IMG/VR virus record: IMGVR_UViG_3300046477_000152
Location: 1-40,999 of that record
Source of the DNA: a virus
DNA: 40,999 bases
Strand: one strand, 5' to 3'
The translations under genes were made by a program, and so were the position numbers. This document shows, one piece after another, positions 2,958-39,090 of this stretch. Each line of letters opens with the position of its first letter. The first letter of the stretch is position 1. Under the pieces are notes generated by a model. That model ran no database searches and was not told the DNA's origin. It saw nothing but the letters and a program-made list of their open reading frames with translations.

Positions 2958-5231
2958 CTACCCGATCGCCTTCGCGATGTTCAGCGCCTGGTTCCATTTC
3001 GCGCGGAGTTCGGGATCGCTGATGCCATTGCCGGCAGCTTCCAGCTGCGCGACCGCGGCCGTTGAAGTTCCCCCGGTCCCTGCTGCGGCCGGGACGGTTC
3101 GCAGCGGCATCGGAACGGCGGCCGTCTTCGCCAGCTTCCCGATCGTCTCGCCCAGGCCCTTGAAACCGGCTTCAACGAAGCCCCTGGTTTCGGCCTGCGC
3201 CTTTGCGATCAGCGCGTGCGTTTCAGACAGACCCTTGCCGATTCCTTCCGCCAGCTGGTCCCCGTGGTTCACCTTGAAAAGTTCCGGCGTCGTCGCCGGA
3301 GCGTAGCTTTGCGCGATCTTTCGGGCGTACGCGTTCAGGACGCGCGGCATAAGCGCTTTCGTGAATTTCGGATCCAGCGCGAGCGCCATCCCGCCGGCGT
3401 CCTTCGATTCGGGAACGGCCGACGTATCGGGCGGCGCGCCCTGCGCGTCGGCGGTCGGGTCGTCGCCCAGTTCGTCGGATTCCAAACTCGCGAAGCGCTG
3501 GATGGCGGCGAAGGCCGTCGCCAGAAGTTCCAGCTGGGCCGACCCTTCGTCGTCCTCCGCGGATTCGGACGCGTACAGGTCGCGCAGGCGACCGAGAATC
3601 GCCGCGGCGTCCGCAATGTCGTTTTCTTCGCCGCCCCAAAGGTATTTCGTCACCAGCGCCCGGACGGCCGCGCGCCGCTTCCGAAGGTCCGCGTCGGTCG
3701 CCTTCGTCGGCTTCACCGTCGGCGACGCCGGCAGCGCGTTCGGAAGGACCGCGAGCGCCATCTGACATTCGGACTGGTTCCGGCACAGCGCACAGCAGCC
3801 GTCGCTTCCCGTGCATTTCGTCGGCGAGGAGCCGTCGCAGCAGGGACAGTTCGGGTTCGACGTCGGGTAGGGTGCCGGGACGCTTTTCGCCGACGCTTCC
3901 ATCCCGTCCTTCTGCGCCGCGGCCAGGTCGTCCTTCTGACAGGCTTCGACGCCGTCCTTATGGACCTTCATGCATTTCGCGCATTTCGCCTTCGTCAGCG
4001 GCGCGTCCGCGGCCTTGCCGCCGTGTCCCTGGACCGCGCCCATCGGCGCCGCGACGGGCGTCCCGCGGACCGGATCCGGCTTTTTCGTCCCTGCGATCAT
4101 GTCGTCTTCGGTGTCGCTTCCGCCTGCGGCTGCGACGCCTTCGATCCCGTCCGCCCCGTCCGGATCCTTCGGCATCGTCGGGTCGCCGACCTGGCCGGCG
4201 ATCGCCGCGGCGGTCGCCGCGGCCGGCTGGATCGACTGCGGGCCGGAAGTCCCAGGAGCGGCCCCAGCAGGCTCGACGCCGGCCGCAGGCGGGTTCACGG
4301 GCGCGGTCGACTGACTCGCCGCGGGTTTGCCGGTCTGGCCGCCTGCGACCGCCTGGGCCGCCGGGAAGGCGACCGCCGGCGACGCCGGGACGCTGGCGGA
4401 CGGCGCGACGGCCTGGTTCGCGCCGGCGGTCCCGGGCGCGGCGCCCTTCTCCTCGACGCCGGCCGCAGCGACCGCCGGCGCGGCGGACTGCGCCGGCGTC
4501 GGGTCGGCGGCCAGCTTGTCCGGGACGTCGCCGGCGGGCGCCATCGCGCCCGTCATGGTCGTGTCGCCGGTCCCCGTCCCGCCCTGGTCCGCTTCGGCGA
4601 ACAGCGGGTCCTTTTCGTTTTCGTCGATCGACATGTTCCCGGCGCCGATCGGTTCGACCGCGGCGGCCGGGACGTTCCTGGCGGCGCCCTTATGAAGTTC
4701 CTTCAGCAGCGCCTTCGCGAAGCGGTCCGTCGCTTCCGCCAGTTCGTCGACGGCCAGAACGTCGGTCGCGACGCCGTCCGCCTTCACCAGTTCGATATTC
4801 GCGTTCGGGTTCGCGCCGACGTCGACGACGGACAGTTCCGTCATGTCCCATTCCAGGACGCGCCGGGCCATCTTGTCGCCGACCTTCTCGGCGACGGCCT
4901 TTCGCGGGTTCGTTCCGCCGACGCTGAACGACTGAAGGATCCCGTCCTGGATCTTCTGGATCGTGTCGGGCGCGCCGGCCGAAATGAACGCTTCGACCGT
5001 GATCGCTTTCGCGACGTCGTCGAAGGTGACGTTCAGCCGCTTCCCGACCGGCTTCCGCGGGTCGTGCGCTTCGCGGACGTTCCCGCGCCATTTCCCGAAC
5101 GCGGCGACCGATCCCTTGAAGTCCAGAACGTCGCCCTGGCTGTCCAGGGTTTCGTCCGTCGCGATCCCGGAAATCTTCAGACTTCCGTCCGCCTGTTTCT
5201 CGAACTTTGAAATCGGAAAAGCGAAACGCAT
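2958..5231 (-). CDS. Prohead maturation protease fused to scaffold, with cysteine-rich linker
   Basis: This 757-aa protein has an XkdF/prohead-protease-like serine peptidase domain in residues 1-150. The probable catalytic His is H56 (NVREAH) and the probable nucleophile is a Ser in ILQSFSVGG (S101 or S103). A conserved acidic patch ELSVVDVGANPNA lies at 132-144. Residues about 170-400 are a long Ala/Pro/Gly low-complexity stretch. Residues about 415-485 contain clustered cysteines (CAKC, CPCCDG, CCALC) that look metal-binding. Residues about 500-757 are helical and charged, as expected for a scaffolding domain removed during capsid maturation. It lies just upstream of the major capsid gene, behind a GGGGAAAGAA ribosome site. 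Protease-scaffold fusion is known; the cysteine segment is unusual. Confidence 0.82.
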   Translation of the reverse strand: MRFAFPISKFEKQADGSLKISGIATDETLDSQGDVLDFKGSVAAFGKWRGNVREAHDPRKPVGKRLNVTFDDVAKAITVEAFISAGAPDTIQKIQDGILQSFSVGGTNPRKAVAEKVGDKMARRVLEWDMTELSVVDVGANPNANIELVKADGVATDVLAVDELAEATDRFAKALLKELHKGAARNVPAAAVEPIGAGNMSIDENEKDPLFAEADQGGTGTGDTTMTGAMAPAGDVPDKLAADPTPAQSAAPAVAAAGVEEKGAAPGTAGANQAVAPSASVPASPAVAFPAAQAVAGGQTGKPAASQSTAPVNPPAAGVEPAGAAPGTSGPQSIQPAAATAAAIAGQVGDPTMPKDPDGADGIEGVAAAGGSDTEDDMIAGTKKPDPVRGTPVAAPMGAVQGHGGKAADAPLTKAKCAKCMKVHKDGVEACQKDDLAAAQKDGMEASAKSVPAPYPTSNPNCPCCDGSSPTKCTGSDGCCALCRNQSECQMALAVLPNALPASPTVKPTKATDADLRKRRAAVRALVTKYLWGGEENDIADAAAILGRLRDLYASESAEDDEGSAQLELLATAFAAIQRFASLESDELGDDPTADAQGAPPDTSAVPESKDAGGMALALDPKFTKALMPRVLNAYARKIAQSYAPATTPELFKVNHGDQLAEGIGKGLSETHALIAKAQAETRGFVEAGFKGLGETIGKLAKTAAVPMPLRTVPAAAGTGGTSTAAVAQLEAAGNGISDPELRAKWNQALNIAKAIG

Positions 5232-22749: not shown

Positions 22750-23040
22750 TCACGACCGCGGCCCATTGCCAGGCTTCACGCCCGCTTTGGCCGCTGACAG
22801 GCGCCGTTCAAGCCTGCGACGTTCCCTGAAGGTGTCTTCGGTGAGGATTTCTCGGCCCTGGACGAACAGCGCGACCCGCAGGCGACCGTCGTCGTGTCTG
22901 GCTTCGACCAGGACCGTATGGACGCCGCGAAGTCGGAAGTGTTCGGACCAGGTCGCGAAGACTTCGCCCCGGGCGTGCGACCAGTCGGTGAAGCGGAAGA
23001 AACCGGCCGGCGCGAGATCGGGAAGACGCTTCCGGCTCAT
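22750..23040 (-). CDS. Hypothetical protein downstream of the helicase
   Basis: This 96-aa basic protein overlaps the helicase stop with its ATG (ATGA). It has a beta-prone core (GVHTVLVEARHDDGRLRVALF) and a charged helix near the end (RERRRLERRLSAAKAG). I recognise no family. It is the last gene of the early block and sits beside the palindrome cluster, so a replication accessory or initiator-type role is possible but unsupported by motifs. Confidence 0.5.
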   Translation of the reverse strand: MSRKRLPDLAPAGFFRFTDWSHARGEVFATWSEHFRLRGVHTVLVEARHDDGRLRVALFVQGREILTEDTFRERRRLERRLSAAKAGVKPGNGPRS

Positions 23041-24275
23041 TCGTCACCTTCCGGATCGTCGCTGGCCGATCGCGCGGGATTGCCGGCGTACCAGACCAGG
23101 GATTTTCCTTTCGTCCCTTCGAAAAACACCTTTCCGTCCGCTTGCAGCTTTGCGCGCGCGTCGAGACGGACCTGGCGCCGCGTTTTTCCGGACGCTTCTT
23201 CCCAGGCGCCGGTCGTCAGTCCAGGGTTTCGCTTGATTACGTCCAGCATGATTTTCGCTTGTGCGTCCGTATCAAGGCCGCGTTTCTTTTCCAGTTCGAC
23301 CCGTTCGGCTTCCTCGACGGTCGCCGCGTCCAGTTCGTGAAACGTGGCGGACGGGAAGTCGCAGCTGCACGCGAACTGGAACGTCTCGCCGTAACCGAGA
23401 CGGTTTTTCGGCGCGCGTATCTCGATCTTCTTTTTCGGATCGCCGTCGACATGAAGGATCAGTTCCGACGCGTATTCGATCGCTGACGATTCGGCGCCGG
23501 CCGCAAGGTCGTCGACGCGTTTCGTTTTGTCGCGGCTGGAATAGGCGCCGCGGTTCACCTGGGAAACCAGCAGCGCGATCGCCTGGTACTTGTCGGCCAG
23601 TTCGCGCACGCGCCAGACGACGTCGCTGACCTGGATGCGGCGGCCTTCGGTCGACGACCTTTCGGACTTCACGACCTGGGCCGAGTCGATCAGCCAGACG
23701 CGCGGAAGTTCGGGCGGCGCGATGCGGTCGAAGTCTTCGGCGAGGAATTCGATCGTCGACGTCGCGGTTCGCGGCTGAAGGAAGCGAAAGAATTTCGTCG
23801 ATTCGGCCAGGGCGCGCGTCGCCGCTTTCGTCGCGACGTCGTCCGGCCGGCGCATGCGCGTCCGTTCCAGGCCCAGCTGCTGGCCGATCCTGATGCGCGC
23901 GCCGGTCAAACCTTCGTCTGCGAACAGACACGCGACGGCGCAATGCTTTCCTAACGCCCGCGCGATCTGCGTCGCGACAAGTGTTTTCCCGATTCCCGGT
24001 TTTCCCTGGATCGTGCAGATCGTCGCGCGTGGAAGGCCGCCGTCGGTGTAGCGATCGACCGTCGGGAATCCCGTTCCGTACTGTTCGCCCAGGGCCAGCG
24101 CGTGATCGAAAAGGTCGGAGAATTCCAGCCAGGCCGCAGCGGGCGTTTTCCCGCGTGCGCCCAGCTGTTCCTGTTCCTGCTGTTCCAGCTGGCGGACCGC
24201 GTCCTGATGCTTCAGCTTCAGGCGCCGGATTTCTTCCAGTTCGGGATCGACTGGTTCCGTAGGATCCGCCTTCAC
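23037..24275 (-). CDS. DnaB-family replicative helicase, ATPase domain only
   Basis: The protein has a RecA-type core with Walker A GKPGIGKT (91-98 from the chosen start) and Walker B VWLIDSAQ (193-200). The DnaB-typical ALLVSQVNRGA (235-245, compare S-Q-x-N-R in DnaB) and the acidic EYASELILHVDGD block follow. It hydrolyses ATP to unwind DNA at the fork. I start it at the GTG at 24275, which overlaps the upstream stop (GTGA), giving 412 aa. An ATG at 24338 would add 21 residues but overlap the 70-aa gene by 67 bases. A linker-like charged helix occupies 10-45. The helical N-terminal domain normally fused to this core is missing here and is encoded separately at 24481-24870. The C-terminus may carry a small helix-turn-helix-like extension (GLTTGAWEEASGKTRRQVR). 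Confidence 0.88.
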   Translation of the reverse strand: MKADPTEPVDPELEEIRRLKLKHQDAVRQLEQQEQEQLGARGKTPAAAWLEFSDLFDHALALGEQYGTGFPTVDRYTDGGLPRATICTIQGKPGIGKTLVATQIARALGKHCAVACLFADEGLTGARIRIGQQLGLERTRMRRPDDVATKAATRALAESTKFFRFLQPRTATSTIEFLAEDFDRIAPPELPRVWLIDSAQVVKSERSSTEGRRIQVSDVVWRVRELADKYQAIALLVSQVNRGAYSSRDKTKRVDDLAAGAESSAIEYASELILHVDGDPKKKIEIRAPKNRLGYGETFQFACSCDFPSATFHELDAATVEEAERVELEKKRGLDTDAQAKIMLDVIKRNPGLTTGAWEEASGKTRRQVRLDARAKLQADGKVFFEGTKGKSLVWYAGNPARSASDDPEGDE

Positions 24276-24484
24276 TTCGTCCGCCTGCGCTTTGAAACGT
24301 GCGCGGCGTACAGGTCGGCGATAACAGCTTCGAACCATCGGCGTCGGACGATGAAGACGCCGGCGAACGGTCCGTCGCCCCAGCCGCTGGTGTCGTGATA
24401 TTCCATCGGCGACCAGCCGCGGGCATGCGTCGGCTGGCGATTGCAGAAAGCGGCGCGCATCTGCGCGACCTGAAACGACGTCAT
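24272..24484 (-). CDS. 70-aa protein between the two helicase parts
   Basis: This 70-aa product is aromatic and basic (SPMEYHDTSGWGDGPFAGVF, then IVRRRWFEAVIADLY) and ends KRRRTK. Its ATG overlaps the stop of the DnaB N-domain gene and its stop overlaps the GTG of the helicase core, so the three are translationally linked. Function is unknown. A helicase partner or loader would fit the position, but no motif shows this. Confidence 0.55.
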   Translation of the reverse strand: MTSFQVAQMRAAFCNRQPTHARGWSPMEYHDTSGWGDGPFAGVFIVRRRWFEAVIADLYAAHVSKRRRTK

Positions 24485-24870
24485 AGTTTTTTCCGTTCGC
24501 GCGCGCGATGCGCTTCAGCGATCAGGCGTCCGTATACGTTCAGCTGCGAACAGTCGGTCGAGTCCAGCAGGCCGGCGACGTAAGCGGCGCCTCCGCATTC
24601 GACCAGAAGGTTCGCGCGACCCAGTTCGAAAATGACGCGCGTCAGGTCCGGACTTTCGTCGGCCGCGATGATCCGGCGGATAGCGCGCCAGACGATCCCA
24701 TGAGCCAGCGTGACGAACGCGCCGGGCGACAGTCCCGGGATTCCCTGTTCGGTCGGCGCCGTGCAGGCCGTCATACATCCGCCCAGGAATGCACGCTCCA
24801 GGTCGACCGTCGCCCGGTACAGGCCGGGCGCTTCGTCCCGGCCCGCTTCAGCGAAGCGATCAACGATCAT
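24481..24870 (-). CDS. Separate DnaB N-terminal domain protein
   Basis: This 129-aa protein matches the layout of the DnaB helicase N-terminal domain. DLERAFLGGCM lies near residue 23. A helix with AHGIVWRAIRRIIAADESPDL aligns with the family's H-x-x-I-x-x-A-I...D pattern. VIFELGRANLLVECGGAAYVAGL then corresponds to the L-x-x-x-G-x-L-x-x-V-G-G-x-x-Y-x-x-x-L signature, and the end LNVYGRLIAEAHRARERKKL resembles the final domain helix. In bacteria this domain assembles the hexamer collar and binds primase. Here it is encoded alone, two genes upstream of its ATPase core. Motif order makes the identification good; the functional pairing is inferred. Confidence 0.8.
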   Translation of the reverse strand: MIVDRFAEAGRDEAPGLYRATVDLERAFLGGCMTACTAPTEQGIPGLSPGAFVTLAHGIVWRAIRRIIAADESPDLTRVIFELGRANLLVECGGAAYVAGLLDSTDCSQLNVYGRLIAEAHRARERKKL

Positions 24871-25031
24871 GGTGCACTTCCCTCGACGCGCCCGGTCCCG
24901 TCGCACGCGGGACACTCCACCTGTACGGGGATCGGGCAATCGGGCGCGCACTTGACGCCGTCGCACTTTTGGGAGTGTTCGGACGCGACGATCCAGCCGT
25001 CGCCCCTGCATCTTTCGCATGTTTCCGTCAT
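24867..25031 (-). CDS. 54-aa DnaJ-type zinc-finger protein
   Basis: The ATG at 25031 overlaps the upstream stop and the stop overlaps the start of the DnaB N-domain gene (ATGA both times). The 54-aa protein has CERCRGDG near its start, CDGVKCAPDC in the middle and CPACDGTG near its end. The CxxCxGxG knuckles resemble the cysteine-rich domain of DnaJ. Such stand-alone mini-proteins are common in phages. Its coupling to the helicase genes makes a role in replisome assembly possible. Confidence 0.6.
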   Translation of the reverse strand: MTETCERCRGDGWIVASEHSQKCDGVKCAPDCPIPVQVECPACDGTGRVEGSAP

Positions 25032-26791: not shown

Positions 26792-27232
26792 TTACGGGAC
26801 GGCTTGAATAATGATCGTCACGCCCGGGGCGTTGTTCACGACGAACTGGTCCGTCGCCCAGGGATCGCGCAGACAGTTCGGCGACGGCGGCGTGCATTGC
26901 GTCCTGATGCGGACGCGAAAGCCGGTCGACTGAATGACGACGACCGGCCCCAGGCCGGGCGGGAACGTCGGCGTCGGTGTCGGAGTCGGCGGCCCGCCGG
27001 GCGTCGGCGGGAGTGTCGGCGGAAACGGTGTCGGCGTGAACGTCGCCGTCGGCGTCGGGCCGGACGTCGTCGGCGATGGCGTGACGGTCGGTGTCGGACT
27101 GGGCGTCGGCTTGAAGGTCGGCGTCGGCGTGACCGGAAGCGGCGTCGCCGACTTCGTCGGTGTCGGAAATGGCGTATAGGCCCGCGCCCGCCCTGCGGCG
27201 AGGATCAGCAGGGCGAGCGCGAACCGACGCAT
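26792..27232 (-). CDS. Exported Pro/Thr-rich protein
   Basis: This 146-aa protein has a signal peptide (MRRFALALLILAAGRARA, residues 1-18) and then about 75 residues of TP/PT-type low complexity, as in stalk or wall-spanning linkers. A compact C-terminal domain of about 50 residues follows, with VVVIQSTGFRVRIRTQ, two cysteines in TQCTPPSPNC, and VTIIIQAVP. The layout is a secreted or surface-tethered domain on a stalk. It is next to the sorting-tail protein, so both may act at the host envelope. I know no family. The TP-rich stretch could be expanded or slippage-prone. Confidence 0.58.
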   Translation of the reverse strand: MRRFALALLILAAGRARAYTPFPTPTKSATPLPVTPTPTFKPTPSPTPTVTPSPTTSGPTPTATFTPTPFPPTLPPTPGGPPTPTPTPTFPPGLGPVVVIQSTGFRVRIRTQCTPPSPNCLRDPWATDQFVVNNAPGVTIIIQAVP

Positions 27233-27796: not shown

Positions 27797-28207
27797 TCAG
27801 TCGGATTTCTTTCGCGCGCGTGTTTCGAGAATCTCAACGCCCAGGACCGCGCGCATCAGCTTCTTCTTCAGCCGGTACATTTCGGTCCGCATCCCCTTCG
27901 CGTCCTCGACGATCGTCTGCCAGGACGCGCCGGACGCGAACGGGACTTCCCGTTCGTATACGAAATCGGCGACGTAGGTGCAGACCGGAAAATCGTTGAC
28001 CGTGATCGCGAACGGTCGCTGACGAATCAGGCGCCGGATCGTCCCGGCCTTTTCTTCCAGGCGCAGCTGCGACCAGCGCGCCGCTTCCCATTTCGAATCG
28101 AACGTGATCCCGTCGACCGTCACCTTCACGTTCCGGAATTTCGTCCGGGCGACTTCGCGACGGTACAGGCCCGCGGCTGCGGCTTCGGCGACGTCCTTCA
28201 GGCTCAC
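27797..28207 (-). CDS. DUF1064-family PD-(D/E)XK nuclease
   Basis: The GTG at 28207 overlaps the upstream stop (GTGA) and gives 136 aa. The sequence fits DUF1064: VDGITFDSKWEAARW (31-45), a later TYVADFVYE with an acidic residue (D81), then VEDAKGMRTEMYRLKKKLM (100-118) with the E/D-x-K pair (E101 or D102, K104) of PD-(D/E)XK nucleases. Such small phage nucleases are thought to process DNA junctions or recombination intermediates. The active-site residues are present. Substrate is unknown. Confidence 0.78.
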   Translation of the reverse strand: MSLKDVAEAAAAGLYRREVARTKFRNVKVTVDGITFDSKWEAARWSQLRLEEKAGTIRRLIRQRPFAITVNDFPVCTYVADFVYEREVPFASGASWQTIVEDAKGMRTEMYRLKKKLMRAVLGVEILETRARKKSD

Positions 28208-28497
28208 AAAAGCCTCATTGCCGACGGCTTCGCCCATTCGACGGCGACATGCCAGACGTAAGGTCCGTCGATCACGGCGCCGATCCCGTGAAAGCCTTCC
28301 GGCCATTCCCGGCCGGTCCCGACGACGGCGAACCGGACCGTTTCCAGCGGCGCTTCGGTGTCGACCATCGCCCATACGAACAGGCCGGCGCCCTGAAGTC
28401 CGACGAAGTACGGATGGGCGCCCCGTGGCATCTTGACGTCGACGAAAGGCCCTTCCGAATCCTTCGCTTCTAGCGAGAATTTCCAAATCGCTTTCAT
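28204..28497 (-). CDS. DUF7352-like protein
   Basis: This 97-aa protein begins MKAIWKFSLEAKDSEG and continues with a MPRGAHPYFVGLQGAGLFVW segment and RFAVVGTGREWP. This pattern matches a small phage/bacterial family of unknown function (M-K-x-I-W-K-Y..., M-P-x-G-A, F-x-x-x-G-T-G), recently named DUF7352. It is a compact mixed alpha/beta protein. It overlaps both neighbours by 4 bases. Confidence 0.68.
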   Translation of the reverse strand: MKAIWKFSLEAKDSEGPFVDVKMPRGAHPYFVGLQGAGLFVWAMVDTEAPLETVRFAVVGTGREWPEGFHGIGAVIDGPYVWHVAVEWAKPSAMRLL

Positions 28498-29410: not shown

Positions 29411-30184
29411 TTATCCGGCGACCAGACCTTCGTCGCCGAACGTGAGGGTCGGTTCCAGGGCCGCGTCCGTCTGCTGATAGCCGGGCCAGTCGTTCGATTC
29501 CCGGCAGACCTTGAAGCGTTCGAACCAGGTGCGCCAGGTCCGCATCCCGGTATCCAGCGCGAACGGCGTCAGCCGGAACGTCTGGACGACGTACGGCGCC
29601 GACGTCTCGACGGCGACGATGAACGCGTCGTCGAAGGTCCCCAGGCCCGCCAGCTGCGCGCCGTTCTGGTAGAAGGGAAGCTGCGCGAAGTAACCCAGGC
29701 GGTCCGCCGTGCGCTGGAAGGCGCCGGGCGAAGCGTCCGTCGTCGACTTCAGATCGACGATCCGGTTCGTCCCGTGATTCTTCACGACGTCGGTCGTCGA
29801 CCGACAGGGGATCCCGTCGACTTCGAAGTCGAACGTCTGTTCCCTGGCGCCTTCCAGCAGTTCGGCCGCCCGCGGATGGACGCGCACGGCCGCGGCGATC
29901 GCCTGGACCCTGTCGAAGTCGTCGGCCAGAAGGATTGTCGCGCTGGCCGGCGCGGCGGCCTTGAACGCTTCCCAGTCCTTCCCGGCGCGCCGGGCGCCTT
30001 CGAACTTCACCAGGCCGGCGCTGTCTTCCAGGACGGCCAGGTGGATCGCCGTCCCCAGCTGCATCGCCGCCGTTTCGTCGGTTCCGAATTCGTACGCCTG
30101 GCGGTAGTGGGCCGGCGACCGTCCCATCAGCTTCAGGTTCGAAAAGTGAACGTGTCCGCAGCGCGGGCCGCAATGCTTCGCCAT
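29411..30184 (-). CDS. RecE/RecB-like PD-(D/E)XK exonuclease
   Basis: This 257-aa protein shows the order of the RecB/RecE (PDDEXK_1) nuclease fold. LGTAIHLAVLE (43-53) supplies the conserved G-x-x-x-H. RSTTDVV follows with D132, then RIVDLKSTT (141-149) with the D144-x-K146 pair, then RLGYFAQLPFY (162-172) with the conserved Y/Q. It probably resects double-stranded ends for phage recombination or genome processing. A CGPRCGHVH cysteine/histidine motif near the N-terminus is an unusual addition. No RecT/Bet-type annealing protein is recognised next to it; the small upstream protein at 30275-30700 is the only candidate partner. Confidence 0.8.
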   Translation of the reverse strand: MAKHCGPRCGHVHFSNLKLMGRSPAHYRQAYEFGTDETAAMQLGTAIHLAVLEDSAGLVKFEGARRAGKDWEAFKAAAPASATILLADDFDRVQAIAAAVRVHPRAAELLEGAREQTFDFEVDGIPCRSTTDVVKNHGTNRIVDLKSTTDASPGAFQRTADRLGYFAQLPFYQNGAQLAGLGTFDDAFIVAVETSAPYVVQTFRLTPFALDTGMRTWRTWFERFKVCRESNDWPGYQQTDAALEPTLTFGDEGLVAG

Positions 30185-34717: not shown

Positions 34718-37264
34718 TTATACCTCTAACCCGACGACCTTCACGGTAACGCCCGTGACGGGATGGTCGCTTTCGATGATCTGAAAGTTTCGATTCAGGC
34801 CGTCCGATACGGCGTGGAAGGTATAGCCGATCGTGTATGACCGGCCGTCGCGCACGCGTTCGATTTCGACCCAGCGCTTTTTCGCGCCCAGGTAACTGAA
34901 CAGCGACGTCGCCAGCGCCTGCGCGTTCACGCTGGACGTAAGGAATCGGCTTTTCAGCGTCAGGCCCGAATCGGTGTCCTGGAAGGCCGGATTCCCAGCG
35001 AAGCCGAAAATCGTCGAGTCGTTTTCGTTTTCGAAGCGGACATAGCCGGTCCAGCGGTTGAAGACGCTTTGCGTCACCATCGAAAGGAAGCCAGGGTCGC
35101 CGTCGATCTGGTCGTTCGTCCCGATCGTGTTCCCTGGCATCGGGCCGGACCGCGACCGGAACACCCAGCCGAACGGCGCGAAGTAGAAGATCCCGGCGTT
35201 CAATAGCGACAGCTGCTGAAGCGCATCGCTGACCGAAAGGCCCGTCATGTCGGCGTAAGCGATCGACGCCGTGAAGGTTTTCGAAATCGACCACATCGCG
35301 CCGCCGAACAGCGCGACGAACGGAAACTGGCCGGACCCATCCAGGCCGGTCCCGCGCAGGATGATTAGGTCGACGTCCATCGGCCGGCCCAGCAGCGATG
35401 CGGACTGGGCCGGGACGTTCGGCGGCGGCGCCAGAAGGATCGGCGTTGACAGCGCGTCGACGCCGAACGTCGGTCCCCACGAAACGATCGACACGCCGAC
35501 GTTCGGGTCCGACGTCAGGCCGTAGAACCTGGCATCGCCGCGGTTCCGCTTGATCGACCGGCCGATCAGATAGGGCGTCGTCATGGCCGTCGTAAAAAGC
35601 GTCATGGTCCCGTTCGCCGCGACCGTGTAGACGAAGACGTTCGGCGACTTCCCCAGGATCCCGTCGACCTGGGCGACGCCGATGAACGAGTTCGGCCCGA
35701 ACGCCGCCGACGCCTTCGCCAGCATAACGATCGGTCCATTAACGCCGGTCGCTTTGTTCGCCTGGTAGGTGCCGCCCGCGATCGTCGCGCCCGCCGGCTG
35801 CCAGGCGGAAGTGTTCATCGTGATCGCGGACCCCGCGCCGGCGGAATTCTGAATGTCGGTGAAAAAACAAGTCCCCGTGTTCGAATCGACTTCGATCCCG
35901 ATCGCGTCGTAAAGCCGCGACATGTCGGTCGTCGTCGTGCCGGAAATCAGCGTCTGAAGCGTTCCCTGGGAAGTCCAGACGTACGACGCCGGGTTCTGCG
36001 TTTCCCAGGTCAGGACGGACGAAAACGAAAACGTCGGCGAATCGACGTCGGCGTTACAGCTGACCGTCAGGCAGTAGCGATTGAAGGTCGCGCCGTAGAA
36101 TTTCCCGTCGTACGCATAGAACTTGAAGGTGACGTTCAGGCCGAACCGCGGCGCGTTGTTCCGCGACTTCGTCCGCTTCGGCGCGTTCTGGAAAATGAAG
36201 CCGGCTTCGGTATTCGTGTCGTCGATCAGCGGGCCGGTCGACGAACTGTTTATCAGGGCGAACGGCGAGATCGCATCGGGCGCCCGGTACAGGCCGAAGG
36301 CCGTCCCCGCCAGGATCGGCGCCTGGAAGCCAGGCAGGACGTCGCCAGCTGCTATCCCCTGGATCGCGCCGGCCGGCATTCCCGTAGGCGGGAGGGGCGT
36401 CGCGAACAGCGTCGAGATCCCGGGCAGCGCTGGCGCCGAAAAGTAACCTTCGGCCGGGAAGCCGGCCGCGTTGAACAGCGTCGTGACGACCGATTCCAGC
36501 GGAAGGTTCCGCTGGTACGGCGTCAGAAGGTTCACAACCTGGCCGACCGCGTAGTTTTTCTGGATCGGCGTCGACAGCGTCAGTTCCCAAAAGTTTCCCG
36601 GCGCCGTCCCGGACTGGGCCGGGTCGGGCGAAACGCCAGCGACGACCAGGACGTCCGCGCCGTTCACCTGGATCGTGTCGCCGGCGAGGAAGTCGCAGAC
36701 GAAGTTCAGCAGGAAGCCGGCGACGGTCGGGCCGGTGACGCGGAGCGTGAAAGGATCCTTCGTCGAAGCGTCCTGCTGAAGCGTCCATTTCCCGTCGAAG
36801 TAGCTTGAGCGCTGGAACAGCGGGACCGCGCTGGTATTCTGAAGCGCCTTCACGCTCGAAATTACGGTGAAGGAAAAAGACGAATCCTTCGCGTTGAACT
36901 GCCAGGTCGACGGCTGAACGATCCCGAAAAACTGGACGTCGAACTGGACTTGCGGGATCGTCGGCGTCGCGCTGTCGGCGCCGGTCAGCCCCAGGTTAAT
37001 AAAAATCGACCAGTCCGCCGACGCCGGTCCCATGTTCGCGAACAGGCCCTGAACGAAACCCGTCGGGTCGTACCCTTTCAGCGTGACGTCGCCAGCCGTG
37101 AAACTATTCGTTCCGGTCGGGTCCTCGATCGTTTCGGTCAGGACCGGCGCGGTTTCCTGCGACAGATACGTCGTGATCTCGACTTGCGGCTGGCCGGCGC
37201 CGGGCGTCAGGTAGACACGAATCGCGGGCGGCGCCGGCGCGGGCGGGATCGGCTGCCAGGTCAC
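34718..37264 (-). CDS. Large tail-tip / baseplate protein
   Basis: The GTG at 37264 overlaps the tape-measure stop (GTGA), giving 848 aa. It is the first gene after the tape measure, the usual place of distal-tail and tail-tip (Dit/Tal-like) proteins. The N-terminal quarter is beta-rich with GDVTLKGYDPTGFVQGLF and FFGIVQPSTWQF, consistent with a hub domain. The middle resembles beta-sandwich carbohydrate-type modules (FFTDIQNSAG, FNRYCLTVSCN) and the end has MVTQSVFNRWTGYVRFENE and RVRDGRSYTIGYTFHAVSDG. The protein may combine Dit and Tal functions in one chain. No lytic domain is seen, which fits the separate lysin downstream. Confidence 0.65.
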   Translation of the reverse strand: MTWQPIPPAPAPPAIRVYLTPGAGQPQVEITTYLSQETAPVLTETIEDPTGTNSFTAGDVTLKGYDPTGFVQGLFANMGPASADWSIFINLGLTGADSATPTIPQVQFDVQFFGIVQPSTWQFNAKDSSFSFTVISSVKALQNTSAVPLFQRSSYFDGKWTLQQDASTKDPFTLRVTGPTVAGFLLNFVCDFLAGDTIQVNGADVLVVAGVSPDPAQSGTAPGNFWELTLSTPIQKNYAVGQVVNLLTPYQRNLPLESVVTTLFNAAGFPAEGYFSAPALPGISTLFATPLPPTGMPAGAIQGIAAGDVLPGFQAPILAGTAFGLYRAPDAISPFALINSSSTGPLIDDTNTEAGFIFQNAPKRTKSRNNAPRFGLNVTFKFYAYDGKFYGATFNRYCLTVSCNADVDSPTFSFSSVLTWETQNPASYVWTSQGTLQTLISGTTTTDMSRLYDAIGIEVDSNTGTCFFTDIQNSAGAGSAITMNTSAWQPAGATIAGGTYQANKATGVNGPIVMLAKASAAFGPNSFIGVAQVDGILGKSPNVFVYTVAANGTMTLFTTAMTTPYLIGRSIKRNRGDARFYGLTSDPNVGVSIVSWGPTFGVDALSTPILLAPPPNVPAQSASLLGRPMDVDLIILRGTGLDGSGQFPFVALFGGAMWSISKTFTASIAYADMTGLSVSDALQQLSLLNAGIFYFAPFGWVFRSRSGPMPGNTIGTNDQIDGDPGFLSMVTQSVFNRWTGYVRFENENDSTIFGFAGNPAFQDTDSGLTLKSRFLTSSVNAQALATSLFSYLGAKKRWVEIERVRDGRSYTIGYTFHAVSDGLNRNFQIIESDHPVTGVTVKVVGLEV

Positions 37265-39090
37265 TTTGTCCTCGTCGCGATTGTAGTCGGGCCGAGCGTA
37301 TTCGAATCGACCATTCGAATCGTCCGGATCAGCTTCTTAACGGATTCGACGTTCGACGGATCCTGAATCGACGCGTTGATCGTCGTGCGCCGGCTGTTGT
37401 CGATGTTCGTCGTCGTCGATCCGCCGCGCATCCCTTCGGCCCAGCCGGAGTCGACGCCCTGGTTCCATTTCGTCACCATGTCCTTCGCCCAGCGCCGGCC
37501 GCCGCGGAACGATTCGGCGTCGTTCGACGGATCGTCGAAGCCAGCGCCGGAAGCGATCGCACCCGCGGAGTCTTCCGACAGACTCGCCTGCGGCGCGCTT
37601 TGTCCCGAAATCTGAACTATGTCGAGGATCCCGACGGCGACGACCAGCGCCGCGAGCGCCGGGCCGAGCGTGCCGCCCTGCGCCAGCGCCTTCGTCGCGC
37701 CTTCATAGGTGTTAATCACGGCGGCGGCGATCGCCAGTTCCTTCTGAATCCCGAACTGTTGGCCGGCGAGATTCAGCACGCCGTTCGCGACGTCCGTTTC
37801 CAGCTTCAGCTTTTGCTTCGCGAGTTTCGTGTACGTCTTCGCCATCTCATGCGTGGAATAGCGCATAACGTCTTCTTGCGCTTTCCAGTTCGCCGTGAAG
37901 CCCGCGAGGATTTCCGCGTCCGTATCGGCGCGCATTTTCGCTACGTTTTTATAGTAGAGATTAAAGGCCTTTTCCTTTCGGAGAATGTCCGCGTTGAATT
38001 TCTTCCAGTCCGATTCGGCGTAGAAGGTCGACCCGGTTTTCCATAGTTCGGCCGTCTTCAGATCGTCCTTCAGCTTGCCGGCATTCGCCGCCAGGCGCGC
38101 GGCGAGCCCGGTCGCTTCACGCTTCGCCATCCGTTCGGCCGCCTGGTCCTCGATCGCTTCCAGGGTCGCGTGGTAATCCTTATCGGCCGCGGTCTGTTTC
38201 GCCCGTAGCTTGTCCCACGCCGCGCCGATCCCGCCGCTTCCCAGGAAAACGTCCTTCATAAAGGTCGCCAGGTTCCCTATTTCCGCGCCCGCTTTCATAA
38301 AGGACGCGCCCAGCTTTTCGGTGCCGATCGTTACGGCTTCGATGAACAGCATGAATGCGTCTTTTACTTTGATAATCGCCGGGCCGATCTGTCCGCCGAT
38401 CTCTTCTTTGAACAGTTCCCAGCGGACCTTCGCCTGGTCGGCCGCCTTCGCGCTGTCGTTCGTCCTTTCCGTCAGGCCGTAGAAGTTTTTTTCCAGGTAC
38501 GCCATCGCGAACGCTGACGCTTCGTGAGCGTCCTTGATTCCCTTGATGCCAGGGATCAGGTCCTTCAGCTGTTTCGTCTGGCCGAGCGCGGCGGCGCTGA
38601 CCATGTTCATCCCGTACTCGAAACCCTTGCCGGTCGAAGTCCCGATGTCCATCGCGAGCGCGACGCGATGCTGGGCGTCGGCAAGGTCGTGCGTCCGCAT
38701 CATCTGCATTCCGAGCGCGCTGGTGACGCTGGGAATCGAAACGCCGCCCATCAGCGCCATCTGTTCGGACCATTCCTTCGCTTCGGCCGTTACCTTCCCA
38801 GCGTCCTCGCCGAAGGCGCGCGCGGCCGTCGCGACAGCGCGCGTCGCCCGTTCCTGGTTGTAAAACTCCTCCGTGCTTTCCTTCAGGAAGCTGGTCACTT
38901 CGGCGAGCGTCGCCATTTCCGCGAGCGCTTCGGTCAGTTTCTTGACGCCCTCTTCCGCGGCGCTGGCGGCCTTTTCCTTCAGGTCCGCCGCGGCGTTCGC
39001 CGTGTTTTTCAGCCCTGCGGTCGCCTGGTCCGTGCCGGCCGAATTGAAAGACGAGTCAATCGGGACGCCGATTCCTTTTTCGTCAGCCAT
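37261..39090 (-). CDS. Tape measure protein
   Basis: This 609-aa protein is long, helical and Ala/Lys/Glu rich. It has the N-terminal coil ADLKEKAASAAEEGVKKLTE, a membrane-like segment in the middle (about 235-255, KDAFMLFIEAVTIG) and a typical C-terminal hydrophobic block (AAVINTYEGATKALAQGG, then ALAALVVAVGILDIVQI). The length would give a tail of roughly 90 nm by the usual 0.15 nm per residue. It sets tail length and may help eject DNA. It overlaps the assembly protein upstream by 8 bases. The body of the gene looks lower in G+C than its neighbours. Confidence 0.85.
   Translation of the reverse strand: MADEKGIGVPIDSSFNSAGTDQATAGLKNTANAAADLKEKAASAAEEGVKKLTEALAEMATLAEVTSFLKESTEEFYNQERATRAVATAARAFGEDAGKVTAEAKEWSEQMALMGGVSIPSVTSALGMQMMRTHDLADAQHRVALAMDIGTSTGKGFEYGMNMVSAAALGQTKQLKDLIPGIKGIKDAHEASAFAMAYLEKNFYGLTERTNDSAKAADQAKVRWELFKEEIGGQIGPAIIKVKDAFMLFIEAVTIGTEKLGASFMKAGAEIGNLATFMKDVFLGSGGIGAAWDKLRAKQTAADKDYHATLEAIEDQAAERMAKREATGLAARLAANAGKLKDDLKTAELWKTGSTFYAESDWKKFNADILRKEKAFNLYYKNVAKMRADTDAEILAGFTANWKAQEDVMRYSTHEMAKTYTKLAKQKLKLETDVANGVLNLAGQQFGIQKELAIAAAVINTYEGATKALAQGGTLGPALAALVVAVGILDIVQISGQSAPQASLSEDSAGAIASGAGFDDPSNDAESFRGGRRWAKDMVTKWNQGVDSGWAEGMRGGSTTTNIDNSRRTTINASIQDPSNVESVKKLIRTIRMVDSNTLGPTTIATRTK

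What the first reader, a model, noticed from the sequence alone, without database searches (positions are those of the whole stretch)
23037..24870. Split DnaB replicative helicase: N-domain and ATPase core in separate genes
A 129-aa protein with the DnaB N-terminal domain layout (24481-24870) lies two genes upstream of a DnaB-type RecA core that lacks that domain (23037-24275). Three ATGA/GTGA overlaps couple them through a 70-aa gene of unknown function. Normally both domains are one chain. A two-piece hexamer, perhaps with the 70-aa protein as an adaptor, would be an unusual replisome design. The phage also lacks a recognisable primase and polymerase.
Basis: partly seen in the sequence, partly recalled or inferred. 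Interest (0 to 1): 0.72.

Follow-up and report, generated by a model that had tools for sequence, protein, structure and literature searches.

The report
Phage DnaB helicase in two genes
An uncultured phage and two relatives encode the two halves of the DNA-unwinding motor DnaB, normally one protein, as two separate neighbouring genes; this split is real and conserved, but the small gene lying between the halves in this genome is not a necessary connector because the relatives lack it there.

Summary
The 129-aa gene (24481-24870, -) is a free-standing DnaB N-terminal domain (Pfam PF00772 E 2.5e-10; predicted fold Z 16.6 to a solved DnaB N-domain). The 412-aa gene (23037-24275, -) is a DnaB-type RecA core (PF03796 E 3.8e-13) without that domain. 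In the single PHROG family of DnaB-like helicases, phrog_19, N proteins of the group cover profile positions 161-270 and this core 295-598, so the pair makes a nearly complete DnaB, cut inside the helical hairpin.

It is not an assembly error. Two other ~40-kb viral records (L089, L090; cores 70% and 59% identical, N-domains about 50% and 40%) have the same split. In both, the N-domain stop overlaps the core start directly (ATGA) and no 70-aa gene lies between. The "70-aa adaptor" idea therefore fails as a general mechanism.

The core belongs to a divergent clade in which the N-domain varies: fused in one Myxococcota copy, absent in its near-identical paralogue and other relatives, split here. 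Most likely the two translationally coupled proteins assemble non-covalently into one phage replicative helicase; that step is inferred. I found no published intein-less split DnaB. Verdict: real, a new variant of a known kind.

The parts
24481..24870 (-). Free-standing DnaB N-terminal domain protein, 129 aa; contains the globular head and only the first turns of the hairpin (ends at the equivalent of Geobacillus DnaB residue 121)
   Evidence: PF00772 E 2.5e-10; profile of three relatives to DnaB 2vye residues 13-119 E 1.4e-17; AlphaFold2 pLDDT 93.2; Z 16.6 to DnaB NTD 2r5u
24272..24484 (-). 70-aa gene of unknown function lying between the two halves in this genome only
   Evidence: No family or phage match; absent between the halves in L089 and L090; codon-position GC 0.59/0.55/0.79 resembles a coding gene
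23037..24275 (-). DnaB-type RecA core, 412 aa: N-terminal helix 11-37, linker helix 53-62, RecA/SF4 motor about 64-316, C-terminal winged-helix-like tail; no N-terminal domain
   Evidence: PF03796 E 3.8e-13; phrog_19 E 1.5e-25 to profile 295-598; Walker A GKPGIGKT, E121, D197, Q239, K290-N-R292 in the alignments; model; Z 27.4 to G40P ATPase domain
22750..23040 (-). 96-aa gene of unknown function coupled by ATGA to the core stop; a homologue lies downstream of the core in L089 too
   Evidence: blastp 65% over 68 residues to L089 ORF 8970-9335
24867..25031 (-). 54-aa protein with CxxCxGxG-type cysteine motifs, coupled by ATGA to the N-domain gene
   Evidence: ORF and overlap; motif read by eye, not tested

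Best explanation
This is a phage DnaB-type replicative helicase encoded as two translationally coupled genes. Shown: one gene gives the DnaB N-terminal head domain, the other the linker plus RecA motor plus a C-terminal winged-helix-like tail; the break falls in the helical hairpin that normally joins them; the arrangement is conserved with purifying selection in three related phages. Inferred: the core forms the hexameric ATP-driven motor, and the N-domain proteins bind it non-covalently, probably through the remains of the hairpin (the basic C-terminal helix of the N protein and the N-terminal helix 11-37 of the core). There they would form or regulate the collar that in ordinary DnaB stabilises the ring and recruits primase or loader. 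Overlapping start/stop codons would keep the two in step. The 70-aa protein is a private addition of this phage, not a structural adaptor.
For: Each half has its own significant match and fold. The halves tile phrog_19 with only a small gap (N protein of L089 161-270; window core 295-598). L089 and L090 keep both genes in the same order with ATGA overlap. One N-domain and one core match per record, so neither half has a full-length substitute in these records. N-domain dN/dS about 0.45-0.54 and core about 0.23-0.31 by NG86, so both are maintained. A fused version of the same core subfamily exists (L267/L243 in a Myxococcota genome: PF00772 E 6e-12 and PF03796 E 8.9e-10 in one chain). Catalytic motifs are intact.
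Against: No complex was predicted or measured: only single chains could be folded. Related cores occur without any N-domain nearby (L268, L270, L244, L092), so the core may not need it. The N protein lacks most of the hairpin that makes DnaB NTD dimers and contributes to primase binding (head 1-112, hairpin 113-151 in Geobacillus, PMC6391071; N protein ends at 121). The extra basic charge at its C-terminus is slight (+3 to +4 against a mean of +1.9 in fused homologues). N-domain and core trees do not agree on a common fused ancestor and the N-domain tree is unresolved.
Confidence: 0.68

Rival explanations
1. The core is a self-sufficient core-only SF4 helicase of the phage, and the free N-domain acts on the host's machinery instead: it mimics the DnaB N-domain to bind host DnaG, host DnaB or its loader and so captures host primase or blocks host replication.
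For: Related cores occur without any N-domain; the isolated RecA core of a phage DnaB unwinds DNA (PMC4523182); no phage primase was found among scanned ORFs; a separate small domain is free to diffuse.
Against: The N gene is joined to the core by a direct start/stop overlap in two relatives and stays in the same short coupled run here, which fits a joint complex better; the primase-binding hairpin is mostly missing (with PMC2761005, PMC6391071).
Confidence: 0.2
2. The N-domain gene is a decaying remnant of a once fused helicase and has no function of its own.
For: It evolves faster than the core (dN/dS 0.45-0.54 against 0.23-0.31) and lacks most of the hairpin.
Against: An intact ORF with its start, stop and fold is kept in three genomes at about 40-50% identity, with a strictly conserved LDSTDCS segment; a remnant would be expected to have broken at that divergence.
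Confidence: 0.06
3. The split is a sequencing or assembly frameshift, or the halves are rejoined by frameshifting or by a split intein.
For: Split inteins from gp41 helicase genes are known (gp41-1; PMC10882715 and the work it cites); one Staphylococcus-type contig here (L050) has a frame-broken dnaB.
Against: Same gene boundaries in three separately assembled records; no intein family match in either protein; no canonical slippery heptamer seen at the overlaps in L089 and L090; in the window the -1 frame after the N gene leads into the 70-aa gene, not the core.
Confidence: 0.03
4. The 70-aa protein is an adaptor that bridges the two halves.
For: Position between the halves with ATGA/GTGA coupling; codon composition like a real gene.
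Against: Absent between the halves in both relatives; no homologue found.
Confidence: 0.03

Closest known systems
Replicative DNA helicase DnaB (Pfam PF00772 + PF03796; phrog_19)
   Same: Both domains present, linker helix, Walker A/B, catalytic Glu and KxR motif; fold matches at Z about 16 and 27
   Different: Two polypeptides instead of one; break in the helical hairpin; extra C-terminal winged-helix-like tail; core only about 17-24% identical to ordinary DnaBs
Core-only mycobacteriophage DnaB relatives, D29 Gp65 type (PMC4523182); nearest library model phrog_243
   Same: RecA core chain without an N-domain; window core matches the short core-only-length model phrog_243 (E 6e-9). That D29 Gp65 belongs to phrog_243 is from memory, not tested
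   Different: Here linker helix and an N-terminal helix are kept and a separate N-domain gene sits next to the core; the passages read in that paper mention no such partner gene
Fractured gp41 helicase genes with split inteins (gp41-1; Dassa et al. 2009, cited in PMC10882715; the paper itself was not available)
   Same: A phage replicative helicase encoded in two genes
   Different: Those halves are re-ligated by trans-splicing; no intein is found here
Fused homologue L267/L243, Myxococcota genome G411
   Same: Same core subfamily (E about 1e-35 to the group profile), with C-terminal tail, and a PF00772 domain
   Different: Single chain of about 550 aa; its N-domain does not group with the split N-domains in an unresolved tree

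Membership tests
DnaB replicative helicase | PF00772 N-terminal domain present | tested here: met
   129-aa gene, E 2.5e-10, above the curated cut-off; Z 16.6 to DnaB NTD
DnaB replicative helicase | PF03796 RecA-type core with Walker A, Walker B, catalytic Glu and KxR finger | tested here: met
   (E 3.8e-13), alignment, Z about 27
DnaB replicative helicase | N-domain and core in one polypeptide | tested here: not met
   Separate genes in the window, L089 and L090
DnaB replicative helicase | Complete helical hairpin between head and linker helix | tested here: inconclusive
   N protein ends at Geobacillus residue 121 of hairpin 113-151 (PMC6391071); helix 11-37 of the core may supply the second helix but was not aligned to it structurally
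DnaB replicative helicase | Hexameric ring, ATPase and 5'-3' unwinding, role in phage replication | not testable with these tools
   Needs biochemistry or a complex prediction
Split-intein (fractured) helicase genes | Intein N- and C-fragments at the junction | tested here: not met
   No intein family among Pfam or NCBIfam matches; the proteins are accounted for by helicase domains and short helices
Core-only DnaB relatives (D29 Gp65 type) | RecA core with no DnaB N-domain gene attached or adjacent | tested here: not met
   Adjacent coupled N-domain gene in three genomes

The most novel reading that the evidence does not exclude
A replicative helicase hexamer built from two different non-covalently held chains, in which the N-domain collar is an exchangeable subunit (possibly in unequal numbers to the motor), from a helicase clade in which the N-domain is gained, lost, fused or detached as a module.
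Probability: 0.4. Interest if true: 0.72.

Novelty: new variant of a known kind. Interest (0 to 1): 0.5.

Why it matters
The role of the DnaB N-domain (ring stability, primase recruitment, loader contact) has been studied by cutting the protein artificially; PMC2761005 notes that removing it abolishes unwinding in some DnaBs and only reduces it in another. Here nature has made the cut and kept both pieces, with fused, split and core-only versions of one core subfamily to compare. That gives a ready system to ask what the N-domain does when it is not covalently tied to the motor.

Tried and rejected
70-aa gene as adaptor: rejected because both relatives join the N-domain directly to the core. 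Assembly frameshift: rejected, same boundaries in three records. Programmed -1 frameshift: overlap ends of L089 and L090 show no canonical slippery heptamer (read by eye); the A-run near the window N-gene end leads into the 70-aa gene. Split intein: no match. Direct peptide-pattern searches with window core, N-domain and terminase found no relatives; the group-alignment scan A2 filled its 600-row candidate list without a confirmed relative; genome-contig scans gave no N-domain relative or pattern matches without a related core. The A1-based scan returned ordinary fused DnaBs and a few truncated contigs, apart from the frame-broken L050. Terminase and portal searches in named phages gave only distant kin; core searches in phages and plasmids gave only distant DnaBs. 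N-domain phylogeny could not decide between gene fission and recruitment of an N-domain by a core-only helicase. The viral structure library gave mainly full-length DnaBs for the N-domain; a few shorter entries (234, 231 and 139 aa) were not followed. Literature searches for an intein-less split DnaB found none, but the library lacks most subscription papers.

Full report
CHECK OF THE OBSERVATION. The 129-aa product matches the DnaB N-terminal domain family PF00772 at E 2.5e-10, well above the curated cut-off, and its closest solved chains by sequence are DnaB helicases. A profile of the three related N proteins reaches DnaB 2vye at E 1.4e-17 over residues 13-119. The AlphaFold2 model is confident (pLDDT 93.2) and its best structural matches are DnaB N-domains (Z 16.6), far above the unrelated rows (Z 4.4 and below). 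The 412-aa product matches PF03796 (E 3.8e-13), phrog_19 (E 1.5e-25) and the ATPase domains of G40P and bacterial DnaBs (Z about 27), and not PF00772. Chance is not an issue.

THE BREAK POINT. In G. stearothermophilus DnaB the head is residues 1-112 and the helical hairpin 113-151; in E. coli the linker helix is 182-202 (PMC6391071). The N protein's model ends at Geobacillus residue 121 / E. coli 138, that is, within the first hairpin helix. The core model keeps a linker helix (53-62) before the RecA domain and adds a confident helix at 11-37. On the PHROG profile of DnaB-like helicases (phrog_19) the L089 N protein covers 161-270 and the window core 295-598: the two genes together make an almost complete DnaB with the cut inside the hairpin. 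Catalytic residues are intact in all three cores.

RELATIVES. A motif scan of IMG/VR found two clear relatives. L089 (40,516-base record): core 70% and N-domain about 50% identical. L090 (40,826-base record): core 59% and N-domain about 40%. Terminase (81% and 55%), portal (78% in L089) and exonuclease (65% in L090) also match, so these are related phages. Both have the same split, and in both the N-domain stop overlaps the core ATG directly as ATGA. The 70-aa gene is therefore private to the window phage. Each record holds one PF00772 and one PF03796 match. N-domain and core are both under purifying selection (dN/dS about 0.45-0.54 and 0.23-0.31, NG86, approximate at this divergence).

WIDER FAMILY. 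Searches of about 980 bacterial genomes in three phyla with the core profile (only a handful of candidates per genome were scored, so not exhaustive) found a divergent clade with the same NRG.Y ... ES..IE motif. In Myxococcota genome G411 one copy is fused to an N-domain (L267/L243; PF00772 E 6e-12) and a second, nearly identical core (L268) lacks it, with no N-domain in 11 kb around. L270, L244, L271 and L092 are core-only; L269 carries about 380 aa in front with only a weak LigD_Prim-Pol match. The core tree puts the three split cores together (100/100) and ordinary DnaBs in a separate group, though several branches are long. The N-domain tree keeps the three split N-domains together (100/99) but does not resolve their place. 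So the direction, fission of a fused gene or adoption of an N-domain by a core-only helicase, is open. Among 88 N-domain hits in the loci held at that point, the only ones standing alone came from these three phages.

MECHANISM. Shown: two conserved, coupled genes giving the two parts of DnaB. Inferred: the N protein associates with the core. The stop/start coupling argues for joint synthesis; the C-terminal helix of the N protein is a little more basic than in fused homologues, and the second half of the core's first helix is mildly acidic, which is compatible with docking but weak. Against it, the N protein lacks most of the hairpin used for dimers and for primase contact (PMC2761005), and core-only kin exist. 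The main rival is that the N protein acts on host DnaG or DnaB.

COMPARISON. Core-only phage DnaB relatives are known, and an isolated core of one phage DnaB unwinds DNA (PMC4523182). Helicase genes broken in two but rejoined by split inteins are known (gp41-1, via PMC10882715). An intein-less DnaB with its N-domain as a conserved separate gene was not found in the held literature. I file it as a new variant of DnaB: it fails the one-chain feature, which lowers 'it is an ordinary DnaB' but not 'it works like DnaB'.

LIMITS. No multimer prediction was available; records may be incomplete; viral-contig scans need exact peptide or DNA patterns and miss distant relatives; scans of genomes were samples.

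Noticed in passing
L267 (5587-7338) and L268 (5125-6567), both from genome G411 (Myxococcota): One genome holds two nearly identical DnaB-type cores, one with a fused DnaB N-domain and one without; L268 has a terminase-like ORF (by eye) about 1 kb from the core, so that copy looks like part of a prophage. A natural pair for testing what the N-domain adds.
   Followed up: partly
L050, 3510-4768: A Staphylococcus-phage-like contig whose dnaB is broken by a frame change between N-domain and core; could be a real split, a pseudogene or a sequencing error.
   Followed up: no
window 24272-24484: 70-aa gene present only in the window phage, lying at what is a 4-base start/stop overlap in the relatives, with the coupling kept on both sides.
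   Followed up: partly
L092, 5271-5651: 126-aa protein just upstream of a core-only helicase ends in WDDVPF, like the acidic tail of single-stranded DNA-binding proteins.
   Followed up: no
window 29411-30184 and 27797-28486: RecE-type exonuclease VIII (phrog_412 E 1.2e-53; PF12684) and a DUF1064 (PF06356) gene lie upstream in the same run of genes; no phage primase or polymerase was recognised.
   Followed up: partly
window 34718-39090: Two large ORFs (848 and 609 aa) with no match in Pfam or PHROGs.
   Followed up: no
window 2958-5231: 757-aa ORF whose N-terminal part matches head maturation protease families and some major head protein families, possibly a protease-capsid fusion.
   Followed up: no
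window 26792-27232: Short protein made largely of TPTPTP-rich repeats, perhaps a secreted or surface-type linker protein.
   Followed up: no
BFVD entries A0A8S5VQ89 (234 aa), A0A6J7X369 (231 aa), A0A3T0ILX5 (139 aa), seen: Short viral proteins with a DnaB/gp41 N-domain fold; may be further split or fragmentary helicases.
   Followed up: no
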